From: a virus
Length of the DNA: 64,000 nt
IMG/VR virus record: IMGVR_UViG_3300020392_000008
Coordinates: 1 to 64,000 of that record
Strand: one strand, 5' to 3'
Shown here: in pieces, positions 58 to 56,430 of the stretch
How the letters are laid out: each line of letters begins with the position of its first letter
Numbering within the stretch: the first letter of the stretch is position 1
The notes under the pieces: generated by a model
What the model was told of the DNA's origin: nothing
Database searches by the model: none
Seen by the model: only the letters and a program-made list of their open reading frames with translations
Made by a program: the position numbers and the translations under genes

Positions 58-96
58 ATCTATTATTATTTATTTTAAAAACCAATTATGCAGACA

Positions 97-130
97 TAAA
101 AAAAACCCAATTTTAAAAAAAATTGGGTTT
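97..130 (-). terminator. Rho-independent terminator of the structured RNA
   Basis: A perfect 12-bp inverted repeat (103-114 with 119-130, arms AAACCCAATTTT/AAAATTGGGTTT, 4-nt loop) is followed on the minus strand by a run of T (plus-strand A at 97-105). It lies just after the gene-free structured region and just before the tRNA gene, so it ends the leftward transcript coming from about 580. Confidence 0.85.
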
Positions 131-580: not shown

Positions 581-585
581 TATCT

Positions 586-593
586 TATTTATA
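586..593 (-). promoter_or_regulatory. Late-type promoter TATAAATA for the structured RNA
   Basis: The minus strand reads TATAAATA, identical to the T4 late promoter core. It sits between the 3' end of the upstream 73-residue gene and the structured RNA, and would start transcription near 575-580. Confidence 0.65.
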
Positions 594-615
594 AAATATA
601 ATACTAAATTTTTTA

Positions 616-837
616 TTAAACTTTAACTTTTTGAGGATAATTTTTATGTAAACATTCAAGTTTATCTTCTGCTTCTGCTAATTTAGTTAAAGCTTCATCT
701 GCATTAGAATAAAAATCCTCTGTTGAATGATCACCGATACCGGCTGCTTTTTCTCCTAAAATATGTAAGCTCATTTTAGCTTTAGCTATTTCAGCTAGAG
801 CCATTGTTTCTAACATAATGTACAATTCTTTTTTCAT
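616..837 (-). CDS. Small hypothetical protein, 73 aa
   Basis: Not recognised. The protein is short, mainly helical in composition (Ala, Glu, Lys and Leu rich), with a lysine-rich C terminus and no signal peptide or membrane segment. The ATG at 837 lies directly after the stop of the ClpP-like gene (839), so it is the last member of a leftward operon. It ends just before the late-type promoter of the structured RNA. Confidence 0.6.
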   Translation of the reverse strand: MKKELYIMLETMALAEIAKAKMSLHILGEKAAGIGDHSTEDFYSNADEALTKLAEAEDKLECLHKNYPQKVKV

Positions 838-838
838 A

Positions 839-1417
839 TTAATCTATTATTTCATCTATCACTCCAAATGATAGGGCTTCTTTAGAATCCATGTACCAAT
901 CTTGTTTTGTTTTTAAAATATCTTTTAATTTAGTCTTAGATATTTTAGTTAAATCTAATGTTATGTTTTCAAATTTTTGTTGAAGCCTTTTTGTTTCTTT
1001 ATAACTTTCTTCCATGTCTTGTGTTTTTCCCCAAAAACCAGTAGAAACTTGATGATACATAGGCGTTGCGTGCTTATAAGCAAACCTTTTATGACCTGAT
1101 ATAAGTATCATAAAACCACATGACATAGCGGCACCAGTGGCATAAGTATGCACGGGGGTAACTGATTTTTCCATTATTCCAAGTAGTCCCATACATTGAT
1201 ATACGTATCCACCATAGCTATCTATCATTATTTTTATAGGGCGTCTAACATAATCTATGTCGTAAACTTTATATAGTTTTTCTAAATGTTCATCATCTTC
1301 GTTTATTCTAAGTATATTTCTAGATAAAGTCTCTATTGATTCTAAATTTACGTCCTTTGCAAAAAATAAAGTTCTGTTTAAAGGAAGCGGTAACGTGTTC
1401 ATGTCTGCCATTTTCAT
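839..1417 (-). CDS. clpP: ClpP-like serine protease
   Basis: 192 residues, the usual size of the ClpP proteolytic subunit. The order of motifs fits: a strand and oxyanion-type glycines in IDSYGG (66-70), the nucleophile Ser99 in GAAMSCG, the base His122 in MYHQ, and an acidic Asp173 in KQDWYM, followed by the family-typical EALSFGVID near the C terminus. ClpP tetradecamers degrade unfolded substrates delivered by Clp ATPases, and the phage copy may join or redirect host ClpX/ClpA. A role as head-maturation protease is possible but not supported by its neighbours, which are metabolic and chaperone genes. Its ATG overlaps the stop of the 47-residue membrane protein gene (ATGA), indicating translational coupling. 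Confidence 0.88.
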   Translation of the reverse strand: MKMADMNTLPLPLNRTLFFAKDVNLESIETLSRNILRINEDDEHLEKLYKVYDIDYVRRPIKIMIDSYGGYVYQCMGLLGIMEKSVTPVHTYATGAAMSCGFMILISGHKRFAYKHATPMYHQVSTGFWGKTQDMEESYKETKRLQQKFENITLDLTKISKTKLKDILKTKQDWYMDSKEALSFGVIDEIID

Positions 1418-1557
1418 TGATTATTATTTAATAGTGAAAATAGCAGCGCGCCTAATGATAAAACGACACCTAATACTAATATATCAGGGACTTCTATTAT
1501 GTTACCACTACTAGTTTCACCTAGTTTTATCATAAAATCATGTTGATAATAATTCAT
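1414..1557 (-). CDS. Small single-pass membrane protein, 47 aa
   Basis: A short frame with ATG at 1557 and TGA at 1414-1416 encodes MNYYQHDFMIKLG..., followed by one hydrophobic stretch of about 18 residues (ILVLGVVLSLGALLFSLL) and a polar NNNQ tail. The stop overlaps the clpP start as ATGA and the spacing to the next upstream gene is only a few bases, so it fits the tight leftward operon. No family recognised. A membrane anchor or host-membrane effector is conceivable but not shown. Confidence 0.6.
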   Translation of the reverse strand: MNYYQHDFMIKLGETSSGNIIEVPDILVLGVVLSLGALLFSLLNNNQ

Positions 1558-1561
1558 GATA

Positions 1562-1855
1562 TTATTTTAAATCGTTATTTATTCTATCCCACCAATTCAT
1601 TCTTTTAAGTCTTTTGTATATGCCATATGGTTGTAGTAATATTCCAATTAAAAAACCATAAACGGCAATAAAAGTCCCTATGACTGGCCAAATAGGTATC
1701 CATCCTCCCCAATATTCTTCCATTACTGGTCCGGGTACATAAAAAGCCATAAAAAACCCAAATAATGTTCCTATAAACTTTAAAATACCTTGTTTATTAT
1801 TAAAATAATGGTCTGTAAAAACCCACGTTATATAATTTTTTGGTGCATTGCTCAT
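1562..1855 (-). CDS. Small membrane protein, two predicted TM segments
   Basis: About 97 residues from the ATG at 1855 (MSNAPKNYITW). An in-frame ATG at 1891 would overlap the end of the GMP reductase gene by 26 nt and adds only a polar stretch, so the start 10 nt after the upstream stop (1866) is preferred. Two hydrophobic segments are visible, around ILKFIGTLFGFFMAFYV and PVIGTFIAVYGFLIGILL, separated by a Trp/Gly-rich loop; the C terminus is basic and aromatic (KRLKRMNWWDRI). No family recognised. It sits between a nucleotide-metabolism gene and another tiny membrane protein. Confidence 0.6.
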   Translation of the reverse strand: MSNAPKNYITWVFTDHYFNNKQGILKFIGTLFGFFMAFYVPGPVMEEYWGGWIPIWPVIGTFIAVYGFLIGILLQPYGIYKRLKRMNWWDRINNDLK

Positions 1856-1865
1856 TTTATTATGA

Positions 1866-2900
1866 TTATTTTTTGAACCTATCATAAGCATTATTTGTTA
1901 TCATATCAATGTTAACTGCTCCTATAAAACTACTTAAATTTATAGAATCAGTATAACTCATGGCTGATCTTAAATAATGTTTAAAATTTTCAGTCCAACC
2001 TGAAAGAGTATATTTAACCTGTCTAATTTCAGATATACCCTCTGAGGTTTTTATATTTTGTTTTCCCCATTTTTTTTGAACTTCTTTAGTTGACATTCCT
2101 CTAAAGTTTTTAAATATAGGTCGCCCATCGTTAAACATTTCTAGTGCTTCTTTGTGGGTTAATTCATTTAAACCAGCTGAATATGCTGTTTTAGATTCAT
2201 ATAGACATGGAGCGCAACTTTCTAACGCTTTATTAAAGATAGAACCTAACATAACAAAATCAGCTCCTAAAGCCAAGGCTTTTATTATGTCAGAATATGT
2301 TTTCATTCCACCATCTGCTACTATGTTAGCAGGACTATCTAAAGCCATAGATTCTTGATAGCATTCTTGAATAAGAGAAGCCATTGGATAACCTATGCCG
2401 GTTTGTTGAGTTGTTAAACAACCTGCGCCATTACCAATGCCTACTCTAACTGAATCTGCCCCGGCATTAGATAGTAGAGTATAAGTTTTAGGATGTGCTA
2501 CATTACCAACCATTAAATAAATGTCATCACCGTATTTGTTTTTAATGTTTCTAGTGACTGTTTCTAAATCCTTGATGTGACCATTAGCAATATCTATTAA
2601 GTACCCTGAGTGTTTCTTAAGTTCACCAGAATTAAACATTTTTTCAATATCTCTAAGCGAATACGATTCAATCCCTGAAAATCCCGTCTTTTCACCTCTG
2701 GGTAAACATGCTATGATTTTATTAGAACTAAAAACATGTTCGTTTTGTCTTGATATAACGGTGTCCATTGGAGCCGTTATAATAGGTAAGTTTCCATCTG
2801 GGTAATATATGTCAATATTTTTTCTAGAAGAAATATTTGTTTGAATACTGGGTCTAATTAATATATCATTAAAATCAAACTTTGTACTATTCATATTCAT
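1866..2900 (-). CDS. guaC: GMP reductase / IMP dehydrogenase family enzyme
   Basis: 344 residues, the length of GMP reductase and without the CBS domains of IMP dehydrogenase. The N terminus (FDFNDILIRP...SSR) follows the GMP reductase pattern. The active-site loop GIGNGAGCLTTQQTGIGYP carries the catalytic Cys161, and the phosphate-binding segment VADGGMKTYSDIIKALALGA follows, then the flap FRGMSTKEVQ. GMP reductase converts GMP to IMP with NADPH, feeding nucleotide interconversion during phage DNA synthesis; IMP dehydrogenase activity cannot be excluded by eye. The start overlaps the end of groES by 14 nt (or 8 nt if Met3 is used), so the two are co-transcribed. Fits with the phage-encoded ribonucleotide reductase. 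Confidence 0.85.
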   Translation of the reverse strand: MNMNSTKFDFNDILIRPSIQTNISSRKNIDIYYPDGNLPIITAPMDTVISRQNEHVFSSNKIIACLPRGEKTGFSGIESYSLRDIEKMFNSGELKKHSGYLIDIANGHIKDLETVTRNIKNKYGDDIYLMVGNVAHPKTYTLLSNAGADSVRVGIGNGAGCLTTQQTGIGYPMASLIQECYQESMALDSPANIVADGGMKTYSDIIKALALGADFVMLGSIFNKALESCAPCLYESKTAYSAGLNELTHKEALEMFNDGRPIFKNFRGMSTKEVQKKWGKQNIKTSEGISEIRQVKYTLSGWTENFKHYLRSAMSYTDSINLSSFIGAVNIDMITNNAYDRFKK

Positions 2901-3186
2901 CTAGCTTAACTTCATTAATATCTTCTAAGATTGCTATTACTTCATTTGACATTATAACATAATGGGTTTCATCCTTGTATTTTATATCTATCCCAGAGTA
3001 TCTATTACACAAAACTATATCTCCCAGTTTTACTTTCATAGGGTTGTGCGGAGTACCTTCTCCGCATGCAATAACTGTTCCTATATTAGGTCGTTTAACC
3101 GATTTTCCAGGTAGCAGTATACCTGATTTAGTTTTAGTTTCCTTTTCAATTGGTTTAATTAAAATTCTTTCGTATAAGGGTTTCAT
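2887..3186 (-). CDS. groES: GroES-type co-chaperonin
   Basis: 99 residues with the GroES order of features: N-terminal PLYERILIKPI, the mobile loop KETKTKSGILLPG that contacts GroEL, then GTVIACGEG, KLGDIVLCNRYSG and the C-terminal strand NEVIAIL. It is a true Cpn10 by sequence rather than the distant gp31 type of T4. It would cap the phage GroEL (18022-19623) or host GroEL to fold capsid proteins. Its ATG overlaps the stop of the upstream nuclease gene by 4 nt, and the gene is separated from groEL by about 15 kb, unlike the host groESL operon. Confidence 0.93.
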   Translation of the reverse strand: MKPLYERILIKPIEKETKTKSGILLPGKSVKRPNIGTVIACGEGTPHNPMKVKLGDIVLCNRYSGIDIKYKDETHYVIMSNEVIAILEDINEVKLDEYE

Positions 3187-4292
3187 ATTAATACTGAATT
3201 ATTTTTTATTTCTAATAGTTTACTATAATTAAATTTTCTATACAGTTTATTTTCATGTATTTCATGATAATCATCCGTTTTAATTTTAGAAGGTATCATT
3301 TTAGTAGATAACCTCATTAATTTAATATTCAAACATATTGCTTCATTTAAAGTTGAAAGCACATCTTCGTCTTTTATTTTAGCTATCTCAATTACTTTTT
3401 TAGTACAATCATCTATAAAAGATGAATCATTTTTGTAGTTATCAATTTTATTTAAGACATCAGAGCCATGCTTTTCTAAGAGATAAGATACTACCTTTTT
3501 AACTTTTGAAGGAGTCATCTTATATATCCTAGGTATATTATCTGACTTATCCCCAGCAAATATTTTTGTTAATATTTCTTGTATAGGGTCAATTTCGTTT
3601 TTTTCATAACCTCTCTGTTCAAACTTTGAAATAACTCCTCCTATTCCTTTTGAAACGTCAGTAGAACTTAGGTTAAAAAAATCTTGCTCTTTTTTAGTTT
3701 CAGTATAGAACACTTTTTTACTTTTAGACATCATTTTAGGCATAACTAAAAAAACGTATCTGCCTGAGTCTTCTACTAATTGAAACATATCTTTATCAAC
3801 AGTGTATATTGCTATATTTTTTTTTGAAGATTCACAAAGGTGTGCAATTATATCATCGCCTTCCATTCCTGTTATTCTATGAAAATTAATTCCAGAATCC
3901 TTGTTTAAGTGTTTTTGAATGTTTTCTTGAAAGTATTCAAAGAATAAGTGAATCATTTCGTCTTTTTTTCTATCTTTATATTTAAAGTCACCAGACGGTA
4001 GATTTACTTTTTTTAAAGTAGAATTTACGTACTCTTTTCTCCAACTCTTGGAGTCAAAAACCATGTGTACTTCGTTTACTTCTTTTTGAATGGGTGAAAT
4101 TAACGAAGACAAATAATTTAAAGAAAAATCCCTAAAACGAATTCTAGCTGTTTCCTTTAAAATATAATTGCCTTCGTTAAATATGTCTTTCATATAATAT
4201 TCTTTACCTATTGTTTTGTCGTTAAATAGCATTCTTTTAACAACGTTAACAGCTACATTTATGTAAGCATTTCCATCTATAAGGTAAATCAT
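3183..4292 (-). CDS. rnh: RNase H-like 5' flap exonuclease (T4 Rnh type)
   Basis: 369 residues with the FEN/PIN metal-site motifs in order: DGNAY at 6-10, VFDSK around Asp80, a basic YKDRKK patch at 105-110, MEGDDIIAHL with acidic residues 144-147, TVDKDM at 165-169 and GDKSDNIP near 255, the last belonging to the helix-hairpin-helix side of the family. In T4 this enzyme removes RNA primers from lagging strands and works with gp32. Here it lies two genes downstream of a gp32 homologue, as in T4. It is longer than T4 Rnh (305 aa), with the extra length C-terminal. Confidence 0.85.
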   Translation of the reverse strand: MIYLIDGNAYINVAVNVVKRMLFNDKTIGKEYYMKDIFNEGNYILKETARIRFRDFSLNYLSSLISPIQKEVNEVHMVFDSKSWRKEYVNSTLKKVNLPSGDFKYKDRKKDEMIHLFFEYFQENIQKHLNKDSGINFHRITGMEGDDIIAHLCESSKKNIAIYTVDKDMFQLVEDSGRYVFLVMPKMMSKSKKVFYTETKKEQDFFNLSSTDVSKGIGGVISKFEQRGYEKNEIDPIQEILTKIFAGDKSDNIPRIYKMTPSKVKKVVSYLLEKHGSDVLNKIDNYKNDSSFIDDCTKKVIEIAKIKDEDVLSTLNEAICLNIKLMRLSTKMIPSKIKTDDYHEIHENKLYRKFNYSKLLEIKNNSVLI

Positions 4293-4312
4293 TTTATACT
4301 ATTGTTAGGTAC

Positions 4313-4639
4313 TTATTTTTTTTCTACCTTTGCTTTACTTTTTTTATTTGAGCCACTTTCAACGGTTGCTTCAGTAGAACCATTTTTAATTGCTCTAATA
4401 GCGGAAGATATTAGTTCAGACTCGGCTAAATTGTATAACCCTTTAGATTGAGCATAATTAGCACTCGCGACCATTACAAAAATAGCTTGACTAACGTCCA
4501 TATTAGCCAGCCATTCCGTATATTCCTTTTCATCATTATAAGAAATAGAGCCTAATAAAACTACTTTATTTGGATCATTTTCTGCTGTTTTTTCTTGAGT
4601 AGCTGCTTCATTAGCTGCACTTGTTTTAGTTGTTGCCAT
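4313..4639 (-). CDS. Hypothetical protein between gp32 and rnh
   Basis: 108 residues: a low-complexity Ala/Thr/Glu N terminus (about 1-25), a folded-looking middle part (about 26-92) and a lysine-rich tail (KKSKAKVEKK). Not recognised. It occupies the slot that in T4 holds genes 59, 33 and dsbA between 32 and rnh, so a replication- or late-transcription-related function is possible by position. I see no sequence match to gp59 or gp33, and no hydrophobic clamp-binding C terminus like that of gp33. Co-directional with both neighbours, with short gaps of 20-22 nt. Confidence 0.7.
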   Translation of the reverse strand: MATTKTSAANEAATQEKTAENDPNKVVLLGSISYNDEKEYTEWLANMDVSQAIFVMVASANYAQSKGLYNLAESELISSAIRAIKNGSTEATVESGSNKKSKAKVEKK

Positions 4640-4661
4640 GTTACTTGGTTTTTTTTAATTT

Positions 4662-5672
4662 TTATAGATTTTGAAATATATCTTCATATTCGTCATCACC
4701 TAACCCTGATTCATTCTGAGAAGAAGTTTCTGGTTTAGATACTTCGGCGATATTATTTTCAGTTGTTCCTGCAAAAGAAACATCGTTTGTAGGTTGGCTT
4801 TGACTAGAACCATTTGAAAGTAATTCTTTCATTCTTTCATCTCTGGTTTCGTTTATAAGCATATCTAATACCTCTTTATAAGGAATAGCTGCTTTTAAAG
4901 CTTCTGCTACTTGAACATATGTTTCATCTGTCCATGAAACATGCTTATAAGGATCCATTGAAGGAGCTGTTTTTTCAAAAAATTCAGTAACTAATTTTAT
5001 AGCACCTTGGTCATCTTTCATTGTAACTTCAGTATCTTTTATAGCAAACCTAAAAGGTGTTTGTTCGTCCATAAATTTACATTTTGTCCAATCTCTCCAA
5101 TTTTTAGTTTTTTTGCCTACTACACATAAAAAATCTTTCCCTTCTAATAGGTGAAATGGATTTACTTTTTTTGTGTCAACTAGTCCATCTTCGTCTGGGT
5201 TCATTTGTTGTTCAAGCAACTCGTTTATTTGGGCTCTGTATTTAAAAATCTTAATTTTTCCTGTTAAACTAGGTACAGTAGGGTCTTTAGACACATAAAC
5301 ATATGAATGATGGGTATACCACCTAGAGAAATTTTCATTTATTTCTTTTACAATAGTTGGCTCTTCTTTATAAAGTCTACCCAAAATAGTGCTTAAAGTC
5401 CATAAAACAGATGGTTTATTTTCATTTGATGGACAATCTACTATTAAAGATTTTCTAGCCACTGGGTTCCATATTTTAGCACTATACTTAGTATACTTAG
5501 AATCTTTATTTCCATTTCTTATATTTGGTATAAATCTAATAACTGATTTATATACTCCATTGCTTAAATCTGGATTAGGGTCGTATATGTTTTCATCTAC
5601 CTTTTTTTCGTAGGTTTGATTTTGATTACTTTGTGATAATGTATCTTCTGGTATGTTAAAAAAGTCGTTCAT
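4662..5672 (-). CDS. 32: Single-stranded DNA-binding protein, gp32-like
   Basis: 336 residues. The N-terminal region is polar. The core contains NGVYKSVIRFIPNIRNG, matching the FIPN region that opens the gp32 OB fold, then NPFHLLEGKDFLCVV and aromatic/basic segments typical of gp32-type binding. The C terminus is acidic and flexible, ending DDEYEDIFQNL, like the protein-recruiting tail of T4 gp32. The Cys/His zinc ligands of T4 gp32 are not evident. It would coat ssDNA in replication and recombination and recruit partners through its tail. Neighbouring rnh two genes downstream reproduces T4 order. Confidence 0.8.
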   Translation of the reverse strand: MNDFFNIPEDTLSQSNQNQTYEKKVDENIYDPNPDLSNGVYKSVIRFIPNIRNGNKDSKYTKYSAKIWNPVARKSLIVDCPSNENKPSVLWTLSTILGRLYKEEPTIVKEINENFSRWYTHHSYVYVSKDPTVPSLTGKIKIFKYRAQINELLEQQMNPDEDGLVDTKKVNPFHLLEGKDFLCVVGKKTKNWRDWTKCKFMDEQTPFRFAIKDTEVTMKDDQGAIKLVTEFFEKTAPSMDPYKHVSWTDETYVQVAEALKAAIPYKEVLDMLINETRDERMKELLSNGSSQSQPTNDVSFAGTTENNIAEVSKPETSSQNESGLGDDEYEDIFQNL

Positions 5673-5705
5673 AATAAATGTATTTTTTTATTTTTTTTAA
5701 TGTAA

Positions 5706-5969
5706 TTATTTAGTTTCAGAAATAGCTGTTCTTAAATCTTTAGCAGCTTCTTCTATTTTTACCATTTGTTTTCTAATAGATGGATGATGAATTTGCTTTC
5801 TAATTTGTTGGGCGCTTTTTCTAATTCTAGTACCTGCGCTCTTATTTCCTTTTTCATAAAACTTATTAGCGTCTTCTTCGCAAGTTGCGATTAATTCTTC
5901 TATTTCAGAGAAAAGATTTTCTTTCACGTCATAGACTGTTTTTCTGAGTTCTTCAAATTGATTATTCAT
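5706..5969 (-). CDS. Histone H1-like (Hc1-type) DNA-binding protein
   Basis: 87 residues, helical and charged, with the hallmark segment KFYEKGNKSAGTRIRKSAQQ that is characteristic of the small Hc1-type histone H1 proteins of Bacteroidota. Length and composition agree with that family. Such proteins bind DNA or nucleoid and may package or protect it. In the phage it sits directly upstream of the gp32 homologue in the same leftward run, which suggests expression with replication genes. It is probably acquired from a Bacteroidota host. A packaged DNA-condensing protein is an alternative role. Confidence 0.75.
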   Translation of the reverse strand: MNNQFEELRKTVYDVKENLFSEIEELIATCEEDANKFYEKGNKSAGTRIRKSAQQIRKQIHHPSIRKQMVKIEEAAKDLRTAISETK

Positions 5970-6015
5970 ACTTATTTGTTTTTTTTATCTTTTACAAATA
6001 AGTGCTAAAAAGGTT

Positions 6016-6774
6016 TTAAATATTGTTTATAATATTGCTATATTTATTAGATAAAATTGCATTAGGGTACAATTTTAAAGTATGGTGTAGCCATTTTTCT
6101 ATTATTTTCATTTTTTCAGAATCATTCATAAAACCTGATTCAACAAATGGATCTAAGTGTTTATCAAATAGCTCATCTATTGGAACATTTTGCTTTATTG
6201 ATTGCTTATTCATGCCGTAAACCATTGACTCTATTTCTTCAGGTAATAAAAAATAAGAGTAACTTTTATTATTTTTTTTACGATATTCCTGAGTTGATGG
6301 ATCTATATTTTGATAATCTTTGTTCCAGCCTTTTTGTTTTAAGTGATTTAATTCGTGTGAAATAGTGTTAATAAGATTAAGGTACATTTTTTTAAATAAA
6401 CCTTTGTTTAATCTATTAGAATCTAAAGCGACTGTTATTTCTATTTCTGGTATATTGCCGTCTGTCATAAACACGTTTCCAGTAACTACGTAACCATTTT
6501 TATCTAGTTTTAAACGTTGCCAATTCATTTTTTTAAAATGAGAATCTTTTTCTAATGAAATGTCTTTTTCTTTTCTTAAAAGAAACCTTACGTCTACGTC
6601 TAGGTCTGGCTCTGCTATTTCTAATTCTTGAAGTATTATATACTCGCCATTAGTTTCCTTTGCGTTTAGTACACTACTTATGAAAAAATCAGATAGAGTT
6701 TTTATAGTACTGTCAAACTCATTTTCTTGAGAATTTTCAAAAATATAATTTGAATATGACACTATGTTTTTCAA
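6016..6774 (-). CDS. Putative zinc metallopeptidase with head-targeting-like N terminus
   Basis: 252 residues. An HExxH-type motif is visible in TISHELNHLKQK, followed about 30 residues later by LLPEEIESMVYGM, where Glu could be the third zinc ligand, as in gluzincin-like folds. The N terminus MKNIVSYSNYIFE resembles the short capsid-targeting sequences of T4-like internal head proteins, with IFE fitting the (L/I)-x-E cleavage pattern of the gp21 head protease. This suggests a protease packaged in the head and perhaps injected, but both function and packaging are inferred. Downstream partner of the 180-residue gene at 6790, sharing the late-type promoter at 7353-7361. Confidence 0.6.
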   Translation of the reverse strand: MKNIVSYSNYIFENSQENEFDSTIKTLSDFFISSVLNAKETNGEYIILQELEIAEPDLDVDVRFLLRKEKDISLEKDSHFKKMNWQRLKLDKNGYVVTGNVFMTDGNIPEIEITVALDSNRLNKGLFKKMYLNLINTISHELNHLKQKGWNKDYQNIDPSTQEYRKKNNKSYSYFLLPEEIESMVYGMNKQSIKQNVPIDELFDKHLDPFVESGFMNDSEKMKIIEKWLHHTLKLYPNAILSNKYSNIINNI

Positions 6775-6789
6775 GTCGAATAATTATTT

Positions 6790-7332
6790 TTAAATATCTA
6801 AGAAGGTTACTTCTAATTCTGTAGTAACTGGCATTTTATTTTTATCGAATTCAACAGTGATAGTTTCTAAGGAATTAAAAGCGTCTTTGTTATCTTTATC
6901 TTTATAATGTTGAACTGAGTCGGTTCCATCTATTAAGCCAGCTTTTACATCAGCTTTAAACTTTTTTAGAAAAGAATTATCTAATCTAGATATAGAAAAT
7001 CTTTCGCCTGTTATGGCGTTTTTTAAGTCAGTTTTTACTTTTTCTATTTCTGATTTAGAAGAATCTGATAATTTTTCTTTTTTATTAGATATGTTTTTTT
7101 CTATCCAACTATCTAATTCACTTTCTTTTATTTTATATAAATTATATCTTTTTTCTAAAGGACCTGCTGTTGATATTTTTTTCCCATCTTTTAAAAAAAT
7201 AAAAGTATAAAATTTTTGCTTAGGAGCGGCAGCTGTCGCTCCCCCTTCTCCTCCTTCCATGCCCATTCCCATGCCCATGTCTTGTTCGTTTACTATAAAA
7301 CTATTAAAATCTTTTACGTATTTGTTTATCAC
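6790..7332 (-). CDS. Putative head-associated protein with Gly/Met linker
   Basis: 180 residues starting at GTG (7330-7332): no in-frame ATG is nearby, and the late-type motif at 7353-7361 lies 20 nt upstream. The N terminus MINKYVKDFNSFIVNEQD has the same pattern (aromatic/hydrophobic helix ending in a Glu) as capsid-targeting sequences of T4-like internal proteins. A Gly/Met-rich linker (GMGMGMEGGEGG) and an Ala-rich stretch follow, then a charged globular domain. No family recognised. A virion protein expressed late is the best reading. Confidence 0.55.
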   Translation of the reverse strand: MINKYVKDFNSFIVNEQDMGMGMGMEGGEGGATAAAPKQKFYTFIFLKDGKKISTAGPLEKRYNLYKIKESELDSWIEKNISNKKEKLSDSSKSEIEKVKTDLKNAITGERFSISRLDNSFLKKFKADVKAGLIDGTDSVQHYKDKDNKDAFNSLETITVEFDKNKMPVTTELEVTFLDI

Positions 7333-7352
7333 TTTATGTAGATTAATTTAAT

Positions 7353-7361
7353 TTATTTATC
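7353..7361 (-). promoter_or_regulatory. Late-type promoter GATAAATAA
   Basis: Minus-strand GATAAATAA, 20 nt before the GTG start at 7332. It matches the motif found before other late genes and differs from the T4 late core TATAAATA only at its first base. Confidence 0.6.
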
Positions 7362-7400
7362 TGAATATAATGTTTATTCTTTTTAGTTTCTAACAATTAA

Positions 7401-7410
7401 GAATAAATAA
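7401..7410 (+). promoter_or_regulatory. Late-type promoter GAATAAATAA for the secreted module
   Basis: Plus-strand GAATAAATAA, 17 nt before the TTG start at 7428. It is arranged back to back with the leftward promoter at 7353-7361, so this 90-nt gap is a divergent late promoter region. Confidence 0.55.
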
Positions 7411-7427
7411 AAAAAACAGCTGTAGCT

Positions 7428-7970
7428 TTGAAAAAAATGCTTTTAATTTTTTTGTCTCTATTTTCCTGTGGTAAAATAGATGAAAACGGTTTTAAAAAAT
7501 ACGTAATTAAAAAAGGTAAACATAGATCCGGTTGGAGGTATGTTACTTCAACATCTAATAAGTTTAATATAGAAGTTGTTTTTGATAAATCTGCAAAATA
7601 TACTACACAGGATCCTATTAATCAATATGACGTAAATAAATTATGGGGAGTAAGCGATTGTGGAAAACATCATCACGATAATTCAATTAGATTTGGATGG
7701 AGGTGGTTAAACGACAGCGTTGAAATATTGTGGTATAGGAGGCTAGCCGGTAATTTTGAATTTGAAAAAATAACTAGTGTTAACATAGATGAAGTAAATA
7801 AAATGCATTTATCAATAAATCAGAATAGTTATGAACTCAGAGTAAATGGAGTAATAAAAACAGTTCCTAGACCATGTTCTCAAGACTTTAAAAGATATAT
7901 GCTTTATCCTTACTTTGGGGGAGATGAAACGGCCCCTCATAGAATAGAAATAAAAATAAAAGAATTATGA
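7428..7970 (+). CDS. Surface lipoprotein of Bacteroidota type
   Basis: 180 residues from TTG at 7428, chosen because it supplies the positive n-region (MKK) of a lipoprotein signal; the ATG at 7437 would lack it. The signal MKKMLLIFLSLFSC ends in a lipobox with Cys14. The next residues GKIDEN contain a Lys followed by an acidic pair, similar to the lipoprotein export signal that sends Bacteroidota lipoproteins to the cell surface. The remaining domain is rich in Trp, His and aromatic residues (FGWRWLND, YPYFGGDETAPH) and looks like a Bacteroidota lipoprotein family of unknown function. Its stop overlaps the protease start (ATGA). The position suggests late expression and insertion into the host envelope; superinfection exclusion is one possibility. 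Confidence 0.7.
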   Translation: MKKMLLIFLSLFSCGKIDENGFKKYVIKKGKHRSGWRYVTSTSNKFNIEVVFDKSAKYTTQDPINQYDVNKLWGVSDCGKHHHDNSIRFGWRWLNDSVEILWYRRLAGNFEFEKITSVNIDEVNKMHLSINQNSYELRVNGVIKTVPRPCSQDFKRYMLYPYFGGDETAPHRIEIKIKEL

Positions 7971-9289
7971 AAATATTACTTTTTTTATCTTTATTAATTT
8001 TTAAAACATGCTTAGGTCAAACACCATGCGCAACAGACGAATATAATAAGCCTTTTATAGAGCAAAACCCACAAAAATATGCCGAAATAGAAAAAGATAT
8101 TCAACGCTATTTAAAGGCCCCTAGAGTTAAATCTGATGGAACATATGTAATTCCAATTGTAGTTCATGTAGTCTATAATGATTGGAGAGAAAATCTTCAT
8201 GATTCTATAATTTATCAACAATTAAAAGTTTTAAATGATAGATTTAATCTTAGAAATGCAGATACTGTATTATTAACAGATACTCTACAGAATTGGAAAG
8301 GTAATTTTAAAATCTCATTTGAATTGGCGCATCTCGATCCAGAAGGATATCCTACAACAGGAATTACAAGAACACACACAAATGTTGGTGAATTTTCTTA
8401 TTACAGTAATAATGTTAAAAAATCAAGTCAAGGAAAAGCGGGTTGGCCAAATAATAGATACCTTAATATTTGGATATGCGACCTTTATGATGGATTGATG
8501 GGCTATGCTCAATTTCCAGGCGGAGAAGACTGGTCGGATGGAGTTGTTGTAGATTGGCAAAGCGTTGGAGATAGGGTCTATTCTTGGACATATCCAATGT
8601 TTCATTCATGGGCAAAAGGACATGTTCTTGTTCATGAAATAGGACACTGGTTAAACCTTCATCACCCTTGGGGAGATTGGGGACCGTGCGGAGATGACTA
8701 TATTCCAGAAACAGGTTTACAAGACGGGCCTATTTACCCAAGTGCACAGTGTCCGGATACTCTATTTAGTCAATGTGATACACCGGAAAGAGTATTTGTA
8801 AAACATTATATGGACTATGTTGGAGCAGATTGTATGTGTACATTTACAAAAAATCAAGTTGCTAGAGGCATTGCGTCTCTTGAAAATAGCAGGGTAGAAT
8901 TATTAAATAGTTACGTGCCTAAACCTATTCTAACAGGGTTTGAGAATACTAAGGTTAGGCCAACGTTTACTAAAGGTAGAATTATTTTAGAATTTCCACA
9001 GTACGAAGGAACTTTAAAAATAGCAATATACGATATGCTAGGTAGAGAAATACATATGAGGCAAACTACATTCCCATTTATTGATATTAAATTAAATATA
9101 CCTAACGGTAGCTATATAATAGACGTACTTAAAAAAGATAAACGAGTATTCCAACAAAAAATAATAATTAACTCAGGTTCGCCGTATGGGGCTAATTTAA
9201 ACTATTTAAATCTTAAAACGAAAGCAGGTGTAGCGAACAGCCTGCTTTCTAATCCGATAACAATAATCGGTCCTAAAACCCTACGTTAA
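7967..9289 (+). CDS. Secreted M43 metalloprotease with T9SS sorting domain
   Basis: 440 residues. Signal peptide MKILLFLSLLIFKTCLG with cleavage before Q18. The catalytic domain carries HEIGHWLNLHH (His223, Glu224, His227, His233; the usual Gly of HExxHxxGxxH is Asn230), preceded by the M43 pattern RYLNIWICDL...GYAQFPGG and followed by the Met-turn region HYMDYVGADCMCTFTKNQ (Met282) with family cysteines. Residues about 336-403 (IAIYDMLGREI...LNIPNGSYIIDV...QQKIIIN) match the type A C-terminal sorting domain of the type IX secretion system. A further 37 residues follow, which is unusual. Translationally coupled to the lipoprotein gene. It should be exported to the outer surface or medium by the host T9SS. 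Substrate unknown; cell-surface or matrix protein degradation at lysis is plausible. Confidence 0.88.
   Translation: MKILLFLSLLIFKTCLGQTPCATDEYNKPFIEQNPQKYAEIEKDIQRYLKAPRVKSDGTYVIPIVVHVVYNDWRENLHDSIIYQQLKVLNDRFNLRNADTVLLTDTLQNWKGNFKISFELAHLDPEGYPTTGITRTHTNVGEFSYYSNNVKKSSQGKAGWPNNRYLNIWICDLYDGLMGYAQFPGGEDWSDGVVVDWQSVGDRVYSWTYPMFHSWAKGHVLVHEIGHWLNLHHPWGDWGPCGDDYIPETGLQDGPIYPSAQCPDTLFSQCDTPERVFVKHYMDYVGADCMCTFTKNQVARGIASLENSRVELLNSYVPKPILTGFENTKVRPTFTKGRIILEFPQYEGTLKIAIYDMLGREIHMRQTTFPFIDIKLNIPNGSYIIDVLKKDKRVFQQKIIINSGSPYGANLNYLNLKTKAGVANSLLSNPITIIGPKTLR
9221..9270 (+). promoter_or_regulatory. Two hairpins inside the 3' end of the protease gene
   Basis: AAAGCAGG (9221-9228) pairs with CCTGCTTT (9241-9248) around a 12-nt loop, and CCGAT (9254-9258) pairs with ATCGG (9266-9270). 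Together with the terminator at 9280 they give three consecutive stems in the last 80 nt of the reading frame. This is consistent with a 3' untranslated structure that has become part of the coding region. Confidence 0.5.
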
Positions 9290-9307
9290 TACGTAGGAAA
9301 TATTTTT
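9280..9307 (+). terminator. Rho-independent terminator after the protease gene
   Basis: CCTACGT (9280-9286), loop TAAT (which contains the first bases of the stop codon), ACGTAGG (9291-9297), then AAATATTTTTT. It ends rightward transcription just before the convergent nrdA gene, whose stop codon lies at 9307. Confidence 0.75.
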
Positions 9308-11475
9308 TATGCATCACATCCGCCTCCTGCACAGGTAAATACTGAATTTTCAGGACGCTTAGGTGTTTGAGAAACTATGTTTTCAGAGGCTGATAATTTT
9401 TTATTTTTAGAAAGCTTAGACTCAGTTCTTGTGTAATATGATCCTGTTTTAAGTCCATTTTTCCAAGCAAAAACAAGTGCACTAGATATTTTACTATATT
9501 TAGCATCTTTATGATAAACATTCATACTTTGAGATTGATCTACGTATTTGTTTCTTATTATTGCTAATTCTAATAAAACCTTTTGAGGTATTTCCCAAAC
9601 TGTTTTATATCTGTATCTAATGTCTTCTGGTATTTCATGTATATTTTGAACGCTTCCTTCGTTTGCTATGATTTTATTTCTAATATCTTCGTTCCATATA
9701 CCTAGCTCATTTAGTTCTCTTACTAAATATTTGTTAACAACTATAAATTCTCCATCTCCCACCATTCTAGTAAAAACATTGGACGTAATAGGTTCAAAAC
9801 ATTCAAATGCTCCTAATAAAATAGCGCTTGACGCAGTTGGCATCAGGCCTAGTAAAAGAGAATTTTTCATAGGGATAGGTTCTCCTTTTTCTAGAGGACT
9901 CCAATCTTCTATATATGTTTCACCTTTACTATATGGGCTTCCTTCCCAGGATGGATATGATTTATTATCCTCTCTAGCTATTGTCATGCTTTCTTCAACA
10001 GCTGCTTTATACATGGTTTCAAAAATATCATTATTCCATTTTTTAGCGTCTTCACTTTCAAATGAAATTTTCTTTTTAGCAAAAAAGTCAGCAAGTCCAG
10101 CTACGCCGATAGCTATTGCTCTCTGATCTTCGCCCGCTTTTTTTGACCATTTATCTGACCATTTGTTGTTATCGATTACTTTATTAAGGGCTCTTACAAG
10201 AACTTTAGTGGACTTTGCTATGCTTCTTAAAGTATCATGCTCAGCAAGATTTACAGATGCTAAAGTGCACTGAGGTGTATACTCAGGCAAACTTGCTTGT
10301 ATTATTTCTGCACATAGGTTAGATTGATTTACAATACCGATGTTACGCTGCATATTTCTTTTATTAGCATTATCTTTAAAAAATGTATATGGAGTACCAC
10401 TTTCAACCTGCGATCTAATTATAGCGTCCCATATTTTTTTAGGTTCTATGGGCTCGCCTAAACCTAATTCTATGGCTTTGTAATATTCTTCTTTAAACTC
10501 TTCACCATGAATTTCATAAAAAGGTTTTAATCCTGCTTTTTTAATATCATTAGGGCAAAAAAGGTAATACTTTTTATTTGATACTAAAGATTCCATAAAT
10601 ACATCATCTATAGTTACTGCCGTAAATAAATCTCTAGCCCTATTTAGTTCTTCTCCTATAGGCAATCTTAACTCCAAAAAAGGTAATATGTCTTTGTGCC
10701 AAGTGGAAAGATATAAGGCACAGCTACCTGATCTGTTTCCTTGTTTGTAAAATCTCATTTTGGCTTGAACCATGTCTGCGAATCGTACCACCCCTCCTGC
10801 TTTTCCTTTAAAGCTTTTTACCATACTTTTAGAGCTACGAAGCCTATCTATACACAGACCTATTCCAGAACCTTCTTTAGACCCATGAGCTATTTTATCT
10901 AAAGTGGCGTTGATTCCTTCAATACTATCGTCCATTAGCGTGGTAAGATTACAACTAATTAAACCATTTCTACCCTCTACACCTGAATTAGACAATATAG
11001 GCGTTGCAAAATTTATTTTTTTATCATATAATTCATTTAATAACTTTCGTCTATCTTTAAAAGAATCAGGGTATAAATGACTTGCTACTCTATTATGCAT
11101 CATTGATGGTATTTCAATAGGTGTTCCATTTTCATTTTTATCAGAATATTTAGTTAAAAAAGTAGAAGCAGCAAAAGAATCAAATTTTTCATCTACCTTT
11201 TTTTCTTCTACTTCTAATAACTTACCTTGCCTAGATATAAGTATTCTTCCTCCTAAGATTGCATAGTCTGGGTGCTCTATTTGTAAATCTGCTGTTTGAA
11301 ACGCGACTATTTCATCTATATCAGTAGCCGTCATACCATCTTTTATATGAGGTACAACTTTTTGAAATAACATATCGGGTTTTATATTTAACCCTACAGA
11401 TTGAGTTTTTATTCTACTTAAAATTTTATTAGGCATAAAGGACTGCTTTGTGCCATCTCTTTTAATTATTTTCAT
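9307..11475 (-). CDS. nrdA: Ribonucleoside-diphosphate reductase, large subunit
   Basis: 722 residues, class Ia alpha subunit. The N-terminal ATP-cone (MKIIKRDGTKQSF..., about 1-90) is present. It is followed by ISCNLTT (first redox Cys), KEGSGIGLCIDRLRSS, the active-site NLCAEI (Asn-x-Cys-x-Glu), CTLASVNL (second redox Cys), PTASSAILLGAFECFEP, and the C-terminal shuttle pair C715/C720 in TCAGGGC. All residues expected for catalysis are visible and no intein interrupts the frame. It reduces NDPs to dNDPs for phage replication together with NrdB encoded 16 nt upstream. Convergent with the secreted protease gene. Confidence 0.96.
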   Translation of the reverse strand: MKIIKRDGTKQSFMPNKILSRIKTQSVGLNIKPDMLFQKVVPHIKDGMTATDIDEIVAFQTADLQIEHPDYAILGGRILISRQGKLLEVEEKKVDEKFDSFAASTFLTKYSDKNENGTPIEIPSMMHNRVASHLYPDSFKDRRKLLNELYDKKINFATPILSNSGVEGRNGLISCNLTTLMDDSIEGINATLDKIAHGSKEGSGIGLCIDRLRSSKSMVKSFKGKAGGVVRFADMVQAKMRFYKQGNRSGSCALYLSTWHKDILPFLELRLPIGEELNRARDLFTAVTIDDVFMESLVSNKKYYLFCPNDIKKAGLKPFYEIHGEEFKEEYYKAIELGLGEPIEPKKIWDAIIRSQVESGTPYTFFKDNANKRNMQRNIGIVNQSNLCAEIIQASLPEYTPQCTLASVNLAEHDTLRSIAKSTKVLVRALNKVIDNNKWSDKWSKKAGEDQRAIAIGVAGLADFFAKKKISFESEDAKKWNNDIFETMYKAAVEESMTIAREDNKSYPSWEGSPYSKGETYIEDWSPLEKGEPIPMKNSLLLGLMPTASSAILLGAFECFEPITSNVFTRMVGDGEFIVVNKYLVRELNELGIWNEDIRNKIIANEGSVQNIHEIPEDIRYRYKTVWEIPQKVLLELAIIRNKYVDQSQSMNVYHKDAKYSKISSALVFAWKNGLKTGSYYTRTESKLSKNKKLSASENIVSQTPKRPENSVFTCAGGGCDA

Positions 11476-11491
11476 CTGCTTTATTTTTTAT

Positions 11492-12451
11492 TTAAAACTC
11501 TACGTCATCGAATATTCCAACATTGCTAGTAGGAATGTCTACTCTAGTATATCCTCCGCCTGTTCTTCTTTCAAAGAAATTATTTTTAGAAGATAAACCT
11601 ATTTTTTTCATAAAATCTAATGGGTTTTTAGTGTTAAATTTTGTTTCTCCTACAAAGTCTTTTAATACTATGTCAGTTACAAATTCAACATACTCTATCA
11701 TCATTTCTTTAGTCATTCCTTGCAAACCGTCAGGCAAACTTTCTTCAACAAATTTTTTCTCTGTTTGATAACAAGATAATATAACTTCTTTAATTCTTTC
11801 AGGGCTTGGTTTATATTCTTCTTTAATGTATTTTTTAAACATTTGAAGGGCAAATTCATAATGAAAAGACTCGTCCCTAAGTATTAATTCATTCATTTCA
11901 GCTAATCCTGGCATTTTATTTCTACTTCTAAACCAGAATACCCCTGCAAAAACAGAAGAAAAAGCAATACCTTCTACACAGGCAAATGCTATTAATTTTT
12001 CAACAAAAGTGCCGTTGCTTAACCAAAATTCTGCCCATGAAGCTTTACTTTTTACAGCTTCATTTGTTAACATTGAATTAAAAAGTTCTGATTTTTCAGA
12101 AGGATCTTCTATGTATGTATCAATTAATAATGAGTAACCGTTTGCATGAACCTGCTCTATAAACATTTGGTGATTATAATAATATTTGGCCTCTGCTATT
12201 TCCACATTATCAATTACATTATCACAAAGATTGTCTATTACTAGCCCATCTGATATAGTAAAAAAGGCTAATATGTTCTTTAGATAAAATTTTTCTGAAT
12301 CATTTAAAGAATTATAATCATCTTGTGCTAAATTTACTTCTTCAGCAACCCATGTTTGCTTTTCAGCCGCTTTATATGCGTCCCATAGATCTTGGTTTTT
12401 AATAGGAAATATAGAATATCTTTTTTCAGTATCTGAGTTTTTTAAATACAT
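11492..12451 (-). CDS. nrdB: Ribonucleoside-diphosphate reductase, small subunit
   Basis: 319 residues from ATG at 12451 (MYLKNSDTEKRYSIFP). An ATG at 12526 is in frame but lies inside a hairpin and would add a non-conserved hydrophobic leader. Diiron ligands are visible: Asp in FTISDGLV, Glu/His in MFIEQVHANGYS, Glu in CVEGIAFSS, and Glu/His in RDESFHYEF. The radical tyrosine is the Tyr of HANGYS, four residues after the His as in E. coli. It provides the tyrosyl radical for NrdA, which follows 16 nt downstream. The leader carries two hairpins (12471-12527), which may control expression. Confidence 0.95.
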   Translation of the reverse strand: MYLKNSDTEKRYSIFPIKNQDLWDAYKAAEKQTWVAEEVNLAQDDYNSLNDSEKFYLKNILAFFTISDGLVIDNLCDNVIDNVEIAEAKYYYNHQMFIEQVHANGYSLLIDTYIEDPSEKSELFNSMLTNEAVKSKASWAEFWLSNGTFVEKLIAFACVEGIAFSSVFAGVFWFRSRNKMPGLAEMNELILRDESFHYEFALQMFKKYIKEEYKPSPERIKEVILSCYQTEKKFVEESLPDGLQGMTKEMMIEYVEFVTDIVLKDFVGETKFNTKNPLDFMKKIGLSSKNNFFERRTGGGYTRVDIPTSNVGIFDDVEF

Positions 12452-12470
12452 ATGAATAATTATTTTTATT

Positions 12471-12527
12471 AGGGAATCAAATCCCTGGTGTTTAAAAAAT
12501 GGGCATATCAAAATAGATTTGCCCATT
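12471..12527 (-). promoter_or_regulatory. Terminator-like hairpin plus second stem in the nrdB leader
   Basis: On the minus strand AATGGGCA (12527-12520) pairs with TGCCCATT (12505-12498) around a 14-nt loop and is followed by T at 12499-12494. This has the form of a Rho-independent terminator. A second stem AGGGA/TCCCT (12486-12482 with 12475-12471, 6-nt loop) follows, and the nrdB ATG comes 20 nt later. It may terminate the upstream S1-like gene, or act as an attenuator for nrdB/nrdA. Confidence 0.6.
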
Positions 12528-12581
12528 ATAGATTTATTTATTTAATAGTTCGTTAAGTTGAACAAGTGGATATGTTTTTTA

Positions 12582-13775
12582 TTAGTTAGTTAATGAATAA
12601 TTAAGTCTCTTATTAAGAGGGTCTACGTTATGAATTAAAACTTTAGAAAAATTAGAAAGATCTAACTTTCTATATTGCTTATCTAGCTTTAATTCTATTG
12701 CTTCCCCATTATAATACATTGATATAGTATTTCTTTTTGTTTCATGTTCTGAAAAATCAAAAGTATTTCCTTCTAAATCTTCCTTTAATCTATCCCATTT
12801 TACTAGGTCTTCTGGTATAGAATCCTTTTTTAATGATAAAATTATTCTATATTGATTTTTTTTATATGAAACACCTTTTACATATACATCAATGTCGTCG
12901 CCTGCCTTTAAATTTTTTCTAATATCGTCATAATTTTCAAAATCAGAGCTATGAACAAGGCCGGTGTAATAATTTTCTAATTCTACAAATACACCAAAAT
13001 CATATGGTTTATTAGTTAAAGTACCAGTGTACATTTTTCCAAATCTTAAGTCTGAAACTTTTTCAGGAAGGCTATGCTTAATGTATTTTTTATAAGAAAC
13101 AATAAATAAATTATTTGACTTATCATAATTATCAACCATTACTGAAATGGTTTTATTTAATAATACAGAAAAATCTTTAATTACGTTTGCGCCGGCTTGA
13201 GAGCCCGGTATAAAGCAATCTATTTCACCTTTATATGTTGCTATATAACCTCCTTTTATTAGTTTTCTAATAGTAACATCAAACCAGGTGTTTTCTTCAA
13301 AGTGTGTTAATAGCTCGTCTCTGTAATTAATAGACCTACTTTTCTTTTCAGATGCAACATATTCACAATTAGAGTTAGATTTGTATAATATAACTTTAAA
13401 AGTTGTTCCATGGCCTTTTTTAAGTTCTTCTATGTCTCCTCCATATTCTTTTAGTGGAATACTTATTTCAACACCTGAAGTGTCTTCTATCGCTTTAATC
13501 ACGCCTGTGTTTAAGCATATGCTTTTTGCATGAACTTTGTATAACTGACCTACTTCTAAGTCCTTGCTTACGTGTAAATCAATTCCACGTTCCTGTTCGT
13601 ATTTTTTGTATAGATCATATAGTTCCTGCGCATAAGGTTCTTTGCATAGGATTTTAATATTATCATTAATGTCTTGGTCAGATAGCTTTACATTCCTATT
13701 GTATTTATCATTTGTTAATGAATCCCAGTCAAAGTCTTCTAGTGGCTGGCCGTTATTTGAATTGTTTTTTTGCAT
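12582..13775 (-). CDS. Ribosomal protein S1-like RNA-binding protein
   Basis: 397 residues. After a polar N terminus of about 70 residues, three S1-type OB repeats can be traced. The first is about 73-148 (GQLYKVHAKSICLNTGVI...). The second, about 158-235, includes GEIDCFIPGSQAG, the segment also found in genuine S1. The third is about 240-320 (GKMYTGTLTNKPYDFGVFVELENYYTGLVHSSDF), the clearest S1 repeat. A fourth degenerate segment may follow. Host S1 is longer, with about six repeats. S1 proteins bind mRNA at the ribosome or regulate RNA decay. In Bacteroidota, where Shine-Dalgarno pairing is largely absent, a phage S1 could steer initiation toward phage mRNAs. That role is inference; the domain assignment is firm. 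Confidence 0.8.
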   Translation of the reverse strand: MQKNNSNNGQPLEDFDWDSLTNDKYNRNVKLSDQDINDNIKILCKEPYAQELYDLYKKYEQERGIDLHVSKDLEVGQLYKVHAKSICLNTGVIKAIEDTSGVEISIPLKEYGGDIEELKKGHGTTFKVILYKSNSNCEYVASEKKSRSINYRDELLTHFEENTWFDVTIRKLIKGGYIATYKGEIDCFIPGSQAGANVIKDFSVLLNKTISVMVDNYDKSNNLFIVSYKKYIKHSLPEKVSDLRFGKMYTGTLTNKPYDFGVFVELENYYTGLVHSSDFENYDDIRKNLKAGDDIDVYVKGVSYKKNQYRIILSLKKDSIPEDLVKWDRLKEDLEGNTFDFSEHETKRNTISMYYNGEAIELKLDKQYRKLDLSNFSKVLIHNVDPLNKRLNYSLTN

Positions 13776-22160: not shown

Positions 22161-22190
22161 AAAGGAGAGTTTTTATAGCTCTCCTTTTTT
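22161..22190 (+). terminator. Rho-independent terminator between convergent genes
   Basis: AAAGGAGAG (22161-22169) pairs with CTCTCCTTT (22179-22187) around a 9-nt loop and is followed by T. The right arm is also the last coding bases (KKGEL, stop) of the convergent CAP-domain gene, so both genes share it. Confidence 0.88.
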
Positions 22191-24365: not shown

Positions 24366-24779
24366 ATGCCTCAAGCAAAAAGAACACGTAGAAAAAAAGG
24401 TGATAAAAACTACATAAACAACAAAGAATTCACCGCATCAGTTATAGAATCAAAAGAATTAGATGAACTTCAGCCTTTTACAATAGAATGCTTTGTAATG
24501 CTAGCAAATAGAGCAGTTGAAAGACTCTATTTTAAAGATTATAGGGACCGGGAAGACTGTATACAGTCAGCATTAGTAGATTGTATTAAATACTGGAGAA
24601 ATTTTGACCCAACCAAATCTGATCCACCAAATGCTTTTGCATACTTCACTCAAATGTGCAAAAACGGTTATGCAAAAGAATGGAAAAAAATTCATAAAAA
24701 AACAGGATTAGAAGATGGAGAAAATGTTGAAACCATTTCACTAAGCACTGGTGGAGATAGCTCGGTATATACTATTTAA
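24366..24779 (+). CDS. 55: Late transcription sigma factor, gp55-like
   Basis: 137 residues, the size of phage gp55-type sigma factors (T4 gp55 185). NYINNKEFTASVIESKE aligns with the T4 gp55 N terminus (YVNNKELLQAII). Then come FKDYRDREDCIQSALVD and NFDP...NAFAYFTQMCKN, the region-2-like core that in T4 binds polymerase and reads TATAAATA. The N terminus is basic (KRTRRKKGDK). It would direct host RNA polymerase to the late promoters seen throughout this window. A gp33-type co-activator was not recognised. Lies one base after the resolvase gene. Confidence 0.8.
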   Translation: MPQAKRTRRKKGDKNYINNKEFTASVIESKELDELQPFTIECFVMLANRAVERLYFKDYRDREDCIQSALVDCIKYWRNFDPTKSDPPNAFAYFTQMCKNGYAKEWKKIHKKTGLEDGENVETISLSTGGDSSVYTI

Positions 24780-56383: not shown

Positions 56384-56403
56384 TTATTTAAGATTTATTT
56401 AGT

Positions 56404-56412: not shown

Positions 56413-56430
56413 TAAATATATCTTTGTGGT

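What the first reader, a model, noticed from the sequence alone, without database searches (positions are those of the whole stretch)
7401..9307. Phage-encoded protease addressed to the host type IX secretion system
The M43 protease has a signal peptide, an intact zinc site and a T9SS-type C-terminal sorting domain. It is coupled to a lipoprotein and placed between a late-type promoter and a terminator. A phage that uses the host's gliding/secretion machinery to export its own protease late in infection would be an unusual strategy, perhaps clearing surface proteins or matrix before progeny release.
Basis: partly seen in the sequence, partly recalled or inferred. Interest (0 to 1): 0.82.

Follow-up and report, generated by a model that had tools for sequence, protein, structure and literature searches.

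The report
Phage protease tagged for host secretion
A marine Bacteroidota virus carries, as a movable add-on, a zinc protease whose two ends carry the host's own export address labels. It probably makes the infected cell put a virus-chosen protease on its surface, and close relatives of the enzyme occur in at least twelve other viral contigs from several phage lineages.

Summary
ORF 7967-9289(+), 440 aa, has a Sec signal peptide that obeys the Bacteroidetes Q-rule, a cysteine-switch pro-segment, an intact M43/pappalysin zinc site and a type A T9SS sorting domain. The sorting domain scores 25.5 bits on TIGR04183 (cut-off 23); its AlphaFold2 model matches the NucA sorting domain solved in the T9SS translocon (8glk_D, TM 0.84). 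Residues known to matter for T9SS recognition are invariant in 12 of 12 full-length phage homologues. The 13 phage proteins form one phage-only clade (100/100) under purifying selection. A sister phage is collinear but lacks exactly the ~1.83 kb lipoprotein-protease cassette, while phages with a 76-86% identical protease share no detectable late sigma or RNR: the gene moves between phage lineages. A gp55-like sigma and a position-enriched promoter motif support late expression. Two details change: the lipoprotein is not a conserved partner, and the terminator is older than the cassette; the ORF has lost its own stop and runs into it. Export through the host T9SS is very likely. The target (receptors or other surface proteins) is inferred, not shown. 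Phage T9SS cargo was predicted once before (Cryophage, 2020): a new variant of a known kind.

The parts
7368..9202 (+). Inserted cassette (about 1.83 kb) present here and absent from the collinear sister phage G028
   Evidence: blastn of window 72-13736 against L118: collinear at 77-88% on both sides; the cassette is replaced by about 37 bp
7402..7409 (+). Late-type promoter element AATAAATA, 26 nt before the first gene of the cassette
   Evidence: Motif [AT]ATAAATA before 18/97 genes, 13/18 at -33 to -23; gp55-like sigma present
7428..7970 (+). Lipoprotein gene (TTG start, lipobox LFSC), 180 aa, all-beta, lectin-like fold at low confidence
   Evidence: homologues in L008 (69%), giant phage LR756504, cyanophages
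7967..9289 (+). M43 pappalysin zymogen with T9SS type A sorting domain, 440 aa
7967..8017 (+). Signal peptide, residues 1-17; predicted SPI cleavage before Q18 (Bacteroidetes Q-rule)
   Evidence: Q at this position in 12/12 full-length phage homologues; rule described in PMC5837995
8018..8134 (+). Pro-segment, residues 18-56, with invariant cysteine-switch Cys21
   Evidence: C21 in 12/12; equivalent of mirolysin Cys23 (PMC6949598); model matches promirolysin/proulilysin
8135..8911 (+). M43 catalytic domain, residues 57-315
   Evidence: PF05572 45.9 bits; dN/dS 0.07-0.08 against the three nearest phage homologues
8633..8665 (+). Zinc motif HEIGHWLNLHH, residues 223-233 (HExxHxxNxxH)
   Evidence: H223, E224, H227, H233 invariant in 12/12
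8939..9172 (+). T9SS type A sorting domain, residues 325-402, seven-stranded; invariant G359 (loop beta3-beta4) and K398 (last strand)
   Evidence: TIGR04183 25.5 bits; 8glk_D TM 0.84, rmsd 2.2; G359, K398 12/12
9173..9286 (+). C-terminal tail, residues 403-440: short phage extension (NSGSPYGANLNYLN), then about 25 residues read through recipient DNA
   Evidence: Alignment A4; sister phage alignment begins at 9203; tail disordered in model
9220..9297 (.). Three hairpins at the 3' end, older than the cassette; the last (9280-9297) is terminator-like with the protease stop codon in its loop
   Evidence: fold z -5.3; terminator scan; same three hairpins in the sister phage
24366..24779 (+). gp55-like late sigma factor
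   Evidence: phrog_234, E 1.3e-19

Best explanation
The gene is an accessory, horizontally moving phage gene for a secreted pappalysin zymogen. Late in infection the phage sigma factor reads it from its own late promoter. Sec exports it; the host signal peptidase cuts before Q18. Cys21 keeps the enzyme latent in the periplasm. The host T9SS recognises the C-terminal sorting domain, moves the protein across the outer membrane and (inferred) removes the domain, leaving the protease on the surface or in the medium, where it self-activates. There it most likely trims host surface proteins, including T9SS-exported adhesins that flavophages need for adsorption, and so limits superinfection and re-adsorption of progeny. 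Shown by sequence: domain anatomy, conservation, insertion and mobility. Strongly supported: late expression, Sec and T9SS targeting. Inferred: self-activation, the target and the benefit.
For: Domains above curated cut-offs (TIGR04183 in 7/7 of the first homologues). Model: catalytic part matches promirolysin/proulilysin (E 8e-21) and the C-terminal domain matches 8glk_D, NucA bound to the T9SS translocon (TM 0.84). Q18, C21, zinc ligands, Met-turn, G359 and K398 are 12/12; G359 and K398 match the loop glycine (RgpB G699) and the conserved C-terminal lysine, and those motifs are required for T9SS export, while C-terminal extension is tolerated (PMC11285876). dN/dS: catalytic 0.07-0.08, sorting domain 0.17-0.27 among the window, L001, L002 and L003. 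Phage-only clade 100/100. Late sigma and promoter. Empty site in a sister phage. Phage resistance in F. columnare maps to gld/spr genes of the T9SS (PMC9233685).
Against: No expression, secretion or activity data. The host is unknown, so presence of a T9SS in it is inferred from kinship only. Pfam's own sorting-domain model stays below cut-off for this member (21.5 of 27). The S1' aspartate that gives known pappalysins their Lys/Arg preference (mirolysin D289) is not conserved at that column (A/S/N/C/D), so the substrate preference may differ. The window copy has a 38-residue tail that could weaken export or CTD removal. The gene is patchy (1 of 32 records that share a window structural protein), so it is dispensable.
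Confidence: 0.65

Rival explanations
1. It is a virion protein: the protease rides on the particle and clears surface proteins at adsorption; the Ig-like C-terminal domain is a virion domain.
For: In other large phages M43 sits inside long proteins without a signal peptide (L041, L043, L047, L049), and those genomes hold weak sub-threshold TIGR04183-like stretches. In L003 the gene lies near the major head protein gene.
Against: Q-rule signal peptide, cysteine-switch pro-segment and a C-terminal domain that matches a translocon-bound sorting domain. Presumed capsid-targeting N-termini exist in this phage, but the protease lacks one. The gene sits among replication genes.
Confidence: 0.07
2. 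It is an envelope or lysis helper that acts in the periplasm or on the inner face of the outer membrane; T9SS transport is incidental.
For: Late promoter; a lytic-transglycosylase-like gene lies near the homologue in L004 (weak SLT match); the signal peptide alone would place it in the periplasm.
Against: The sorting domain is under purifying selection and keeps the functional residues in 12/12; the cysteine switch would keep it latent in the periplasm.
Confidence: 0.12
3. It is an auxiliary nutritional gene: the secreted protease digests environmental protein and feeds the infected cell.
For: Related M43 proteins are found in 197 of 298 Flavobacteriales genomes; Cryophage carries T9SS-tagged glycoside hydrolases (PMC7468147).
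Against: A late promoter gives little time for nutrient gain in a lytic infection; the phage enzymes form their own long-branched clade and are not recent host copies.
Confidence: 0.13
4. A hitchhiking or decaying gene without function in the phage.
For: Patchy occurrence; the window copy has lost its own stop codon.
Against: dN/dS well below 1 in both main domains in the pairs measured and intact active site in every full-length copy.
Confidence: 0.03

Closest known systems
Cryophage T9SS cargo proteins (Bellas et al. 2020, PMC7468147)
   Same: Phage genes with T9SS type A sorting domains; the authors propose hijacking of the host system and superinfection exclusion.
   Different: Their cargo is an endoglucanase, a GH39 and a PA14 protein in one phage. 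Here it is a pappalysin zymogen forming a phage-only clade shared by several phage lineages, with a demonstrated insertion site, late promoter and conserved recognition residues.
Mirolysin (Tannerella forsythia, MEROPS M43, PMC6949598)
   Same: Signal peptide, short pro-segment with cysteine switch, M43 catalytic domain, secreted; best match by sequence and structure. That it is a T9SS (KLIKK) protease is from general knowledge.
   Different: Phage-borne; about 35% identical; the S1' specificity aspartate is not conserved at its column; no pro-segment arginine two residues before the cysteine; short SPYG-type extension after the sorting domain in most phage copies.
Q-rule exported proteins of Porphyromonas gingivalis phages (PMC10367356)
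   Same: Phage proteins adapted to the Bacteroidetes Sec/SPI pathway.
   Different: Those are of unknown function and no sorting domain is reported.
Receptor-blocking phage lipoproteins such as T5 Llp (from general knowledge)
   Same: Phage product placed at the outer membrane to stop re-adsorption (as proposed here for the protease, perhaps with the lipoprotein).
   Different: Llp blocks a receptor by binding; here a protease would destroy surface proteins. No homology was tested.

Membership tests
Peptidase family M43 (pappalysins) | M43 domain above curated cut-off | tested here: met
   PF05572 45.9 bits, cut-off 23; mirolysin 7e-51
Peptidase family M43 (pappalysins) | Zinc-binding HExxHxx(G/N/D)xxH and Met-turn followed by Tyr | tested here: met
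   H223 E224 H227 H233 M282 Y284 in 12/12 full-length copies
Peptidase family M43 (pappalysins) | Cysteine-switch pro-segment | tested here: met
   C21 12/12; model aligns with promirolysin
Peptidase family M43 (pappalysins) | Asp in S1' pocket (mirolysin D289) for Lys/Arg at P1' | tested here: inconclusive
   Column holds A/S/N/C/D; the next residue is D, S or E. Whether the neighbour can replace it is not known.
T9SS type A cargo | C-terminal TIGR04183 domain above cut-off | tested here: met
   25.5 bits, cut-off 23; 7/7 of the first homologues over cut-off
T9SS type A cargo | Seven-stranded Ig-like CTD with loop beta3-beta4 glycine and C-terminal-strand lysine | tested here: met
   Model strands, pLDDT about 80-91; 8glk_D TM 0.84; G359, K398 12/12
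T9SS type A cargo | Sec signal peptide | tested here: met
   Hydrophobic N-terminus and Q-rule site 12/12; no dedicated predictor was available
T9SS type A cargo | T9SS-dependent secretion and CTD removal | not testable with these tools
   Needs an experiment
T4-like late gene | TATAAATA-type promoter and gp55-like sigma | tested here: met
   the element here is AATAAATA, one base off the T4 consensus
Fixed lipoprotein-protease system | Conserved neighbourhood of the two genes | tested here: not met
   Not adjacent in the other phages with the protease; lipoprotein homologue in G007, which has no TIGR04183 match

The most novel reading that the evidence does not exclude
Bacteroidota phages keep a phage-specific, horizontally traded family of latent proteases that they send out through the same T9SS that displays their receptors, so that the infected cell strips its own T9SS-exported surface proteins before lysis: a protease counterpart of viral receptor-destroying enzymes.
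Probability: 0.35. Interest if true: 0.85.

Novelty: new variant of a known kind. Interest (0 to 1): 0.68.

Why it matters
If right, a phage chooses which enzyme the infected cell displays by using the host's dedicated surface-secretion machine. That links phage infection to gliding, adhesion and polymer degradation in marine Bacteroidota, and it offers a ready source of diverse natural T9SS substrates. It also makes a concrete question testable: whether phages remove their own receptors by secreted proteolysis.

Tried and rejected
Rfam search of 6500-10000 found nothing. PHROGs and PADLOC give no hit for either cassette protein. The phage GenBank collection holds only one remote M43 hit. Sigma-70-type promoters are no more frequent than in shuffles. 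The idea that the C-terminal tail with its three hairpins is a functional extension or RNA element of the protease was rejected: the hairpins are in the sister phage without the cassette. The idea of a conserved lipoprotein-protease pair was rejected. L016, filed under a Prochlorococcus single-cell genome, was rejected as a cyanobacterial gene: it falls in the phage clade and shares a neighbour gene with phage L034. Comparing whole phages with the baseplate wedge was uninformative (nothing matched in any record, sister phages included), so late sigma and RNR were used instead. One pfam call failed on coordinates, two genome searches on the form of a handle, and a paper was not held.

Full report
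WHAT IS THERE. The window is the first 64 kb of a 105,022-base virus record with gp32-like SSB, RNR, GroEL, ClpP, baseplate wedge and a gp55-like late sigma: a T4-like phage, by its gene content probably of Bacteroidota. Two plus-strand genes, a 180-aa lipoprotein (7428-7970) and a 440-aa protease (7967-9289), sit inside a long block of minus-strand replication genes.

THE PROTEASE. It holds an M43 domain (45.9 bits, cut-off 23) and a TIGR04183 sorting domain (25.5 bits, cut-off 23). Pfam's equivalent model stays below its cut-off (21.5 of 27). The nearest solved structures are mirolysin and ulilysin. The AlphaFold2 model from 13 homologues is of moderate overall confidence (pLDDT 68) but the sorting domain is well predicted (about 80-91). 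Foldseek finds promirolysin/proulilysin for the enzyme and 8glk_D, the NucA sorting domain bound in the T9SS translocon, for the C-terminal domain (TM 0.84 on the target, rmsd 2.2).

FUNCTIONAL RESIDUES. In 12 of 12 full-length phage homologues these are invariant: Q18 at the signal-peptidase site (the Bacteroidetes Q-rule, PMC5837995), C21 (cysteine switch, as Cys23 of mirolysin, PMC6949598), the three zinc histidines and the glutamate, the Met-turn Met and its Tyr, G359 and K398. G359 lies in YDMLGRE, which I read as the counterpart of RgpB FDMNGRR; [quoted passage not shown] The S1' aspartate of mirolysin is not conserved at its column, so the cleavage preference may differ.

SELECTION AND ORIGIN. 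Pairwise dN/dS between the window copy and its three nearest homologues is 0.07-0.08 for the enzyme and 0.17-0.24 for the sorting domain (pro-segment and signal peptide are too short or saturated to judge). A tree of 51 M43 domains puts the 13 phage proteins of this type in one clade with full support on a long branch; the closest bacterial proteins, drawn from 298 Flavobacteriales genomes, are only 38-42% identical. Bacterial sampling was by similarity and is not exhaustive, and several long branches are present, so the deeper placement is unsure.

A MOVING CASSETTE. Sister phage G028 has a 92% identical late sigma and an 88% identical RNR and is collinear with window 72-13736, but 7368-9202 is replaced by about 37 bases. 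It lacks any M43 or TIGR04183 match on its 85.5 kb. By contrast, the phages with 76-86% identical proteases (G001, G002, G003) show no match to the window's late sigma or RNR (G001 is only 54 kb, and the baseplate wedge matched nothing anywhere, so it says nothing). Only 1 of 32 records that share a window structural protein has the protease. The gene therefore travels between lineages. From 9203 on the window aligns with the sister's RNR-side terminator region with the same three hairpins: the protease ORF has lost its own stop and reads about 25 residues into older DNA.

EXPRESSION. [AT]ATAAATA lies before 18 of 97 genes, 13 of them at -33 to -23 (4e-6 by binomial). Mononucleotide shuffles of the upstream regions give 9.1 +/- 2.7 genes, so position, not mere presence, carries the argument. 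The cassette brings its own copy at 7402. In relatives a similar element is within 60 nt before the protease in L001, L016 and L037 only.

THE LIPOPROTEIN. It is all-beta and weakly lectin-like by fold (pLDDT 63), with relatives in a phage without a T9SS-tagged protein, in a giant phage and in cyanophages, and in 4 of 298 Flavobacteriales genomes. It is not a conserved partner of the protease.

WIDER PICTURE. T9SS sorting domains were found in further large viral contigs, several with two to four such proteins (G010, G012, G014, G015, G024). M43 enzymes in phages come in three forms: with sorting domain, as lipoproteins without it (L045, L046, L048, L050), and inside long proteins without a signal peptide (L041, L043, L047, L049). 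This suggests that cutting proteins at the cell surface helps such phages, whichever way the enzyme gets there (inference).

HOW IT PROBABLY WORKS. Late transcription; Sec export and cleavage before Q18; latency by Cys21 in the periplasm; T9SS export by the sorting domain; activation outside. F. columnare mutants in gld/spr (T9SS) genes are phage resistant (PMC9233685), so T9SS-exported proteins matter for phage adsorption; a secreted protease could remove them. Step estimates: real, selected gene 0.97; active protease 0.9; Sec and T9SS export 0.85; late expression 0.8; surface or receptor trimming as main role 0.45.

NOVELTY. Phage T9SS cargo was proposed by Bellas et al. 2020 (PMC7468147), and Q-rule phage proteins by a 2023 study (PMC10367356). 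New here: a zymogen protease as cargo, the phage-only clade, its exchange among lineages, the empty site, and residue-level support for T9SS recognition. The library used holds only open-licence papers, so earlier reports may be missed.

Noticed in passing
window 22173-22724 (-): A second protein with a Q-rule-like signal peptide (MKTLLIIAFTILFNPIFSQ), 183 aa, with a CAP/SCP-like motif by eye; no Pfam or PHROGs hit.
   Followed up: partly
window 6016-6774 (-): A 252-aa protein near the cassette carries HELNH, a possible zincin motif, without signal peptide; no family hit.
   Followed up: partly
window 6790-7332 and record positions 84858-98116: Seven of 97 genes begin with an F/Y..F/Y...(N/E)E motif (control rate 0.26%), like a capsid-targeting N-terminus of T4 internal proteins.
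   Followed up: partly
G010, G012, G014, G015, G022, G024 (L077-L083): Other large viral contigs encode one to four further T9SS-tagged proteins, for example a PKD/MAM-domain protein of about 1,030 aa.
   Followed up: partly
L041, L043, L047, L049: M43 domains inside 850-1130-aa proteins without a signal peptide in freshwater large phages, in runs of long co-oriented genes that look structural.
   Followed up: partly
L016 (QCKH01000018.1): A contig filed under a Prochlorococcus single-cell genome carries the phage-type protease and a neighbour gene shared with phage L034: probably co-sorted phage DNA.
   Followed up: partly
window 9220-9297: Three successive hairpins downstream of RNR conserved in a sister phage (z -5.3); possibly a bidirectional terminator cluster.
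   Followed up: partly
L006 10844-11329: Directly after the protease in L006 lies a 161-aa protein with a signal peptide and HELGH: perhaps a second small secreted metalloprotease; no Pfam hit.
   Followed up: partly
window 52000-58000: Higher G+C (0.35-0.39 against about 0.30) over long tail-fibre-like genes.
   Followed up: no
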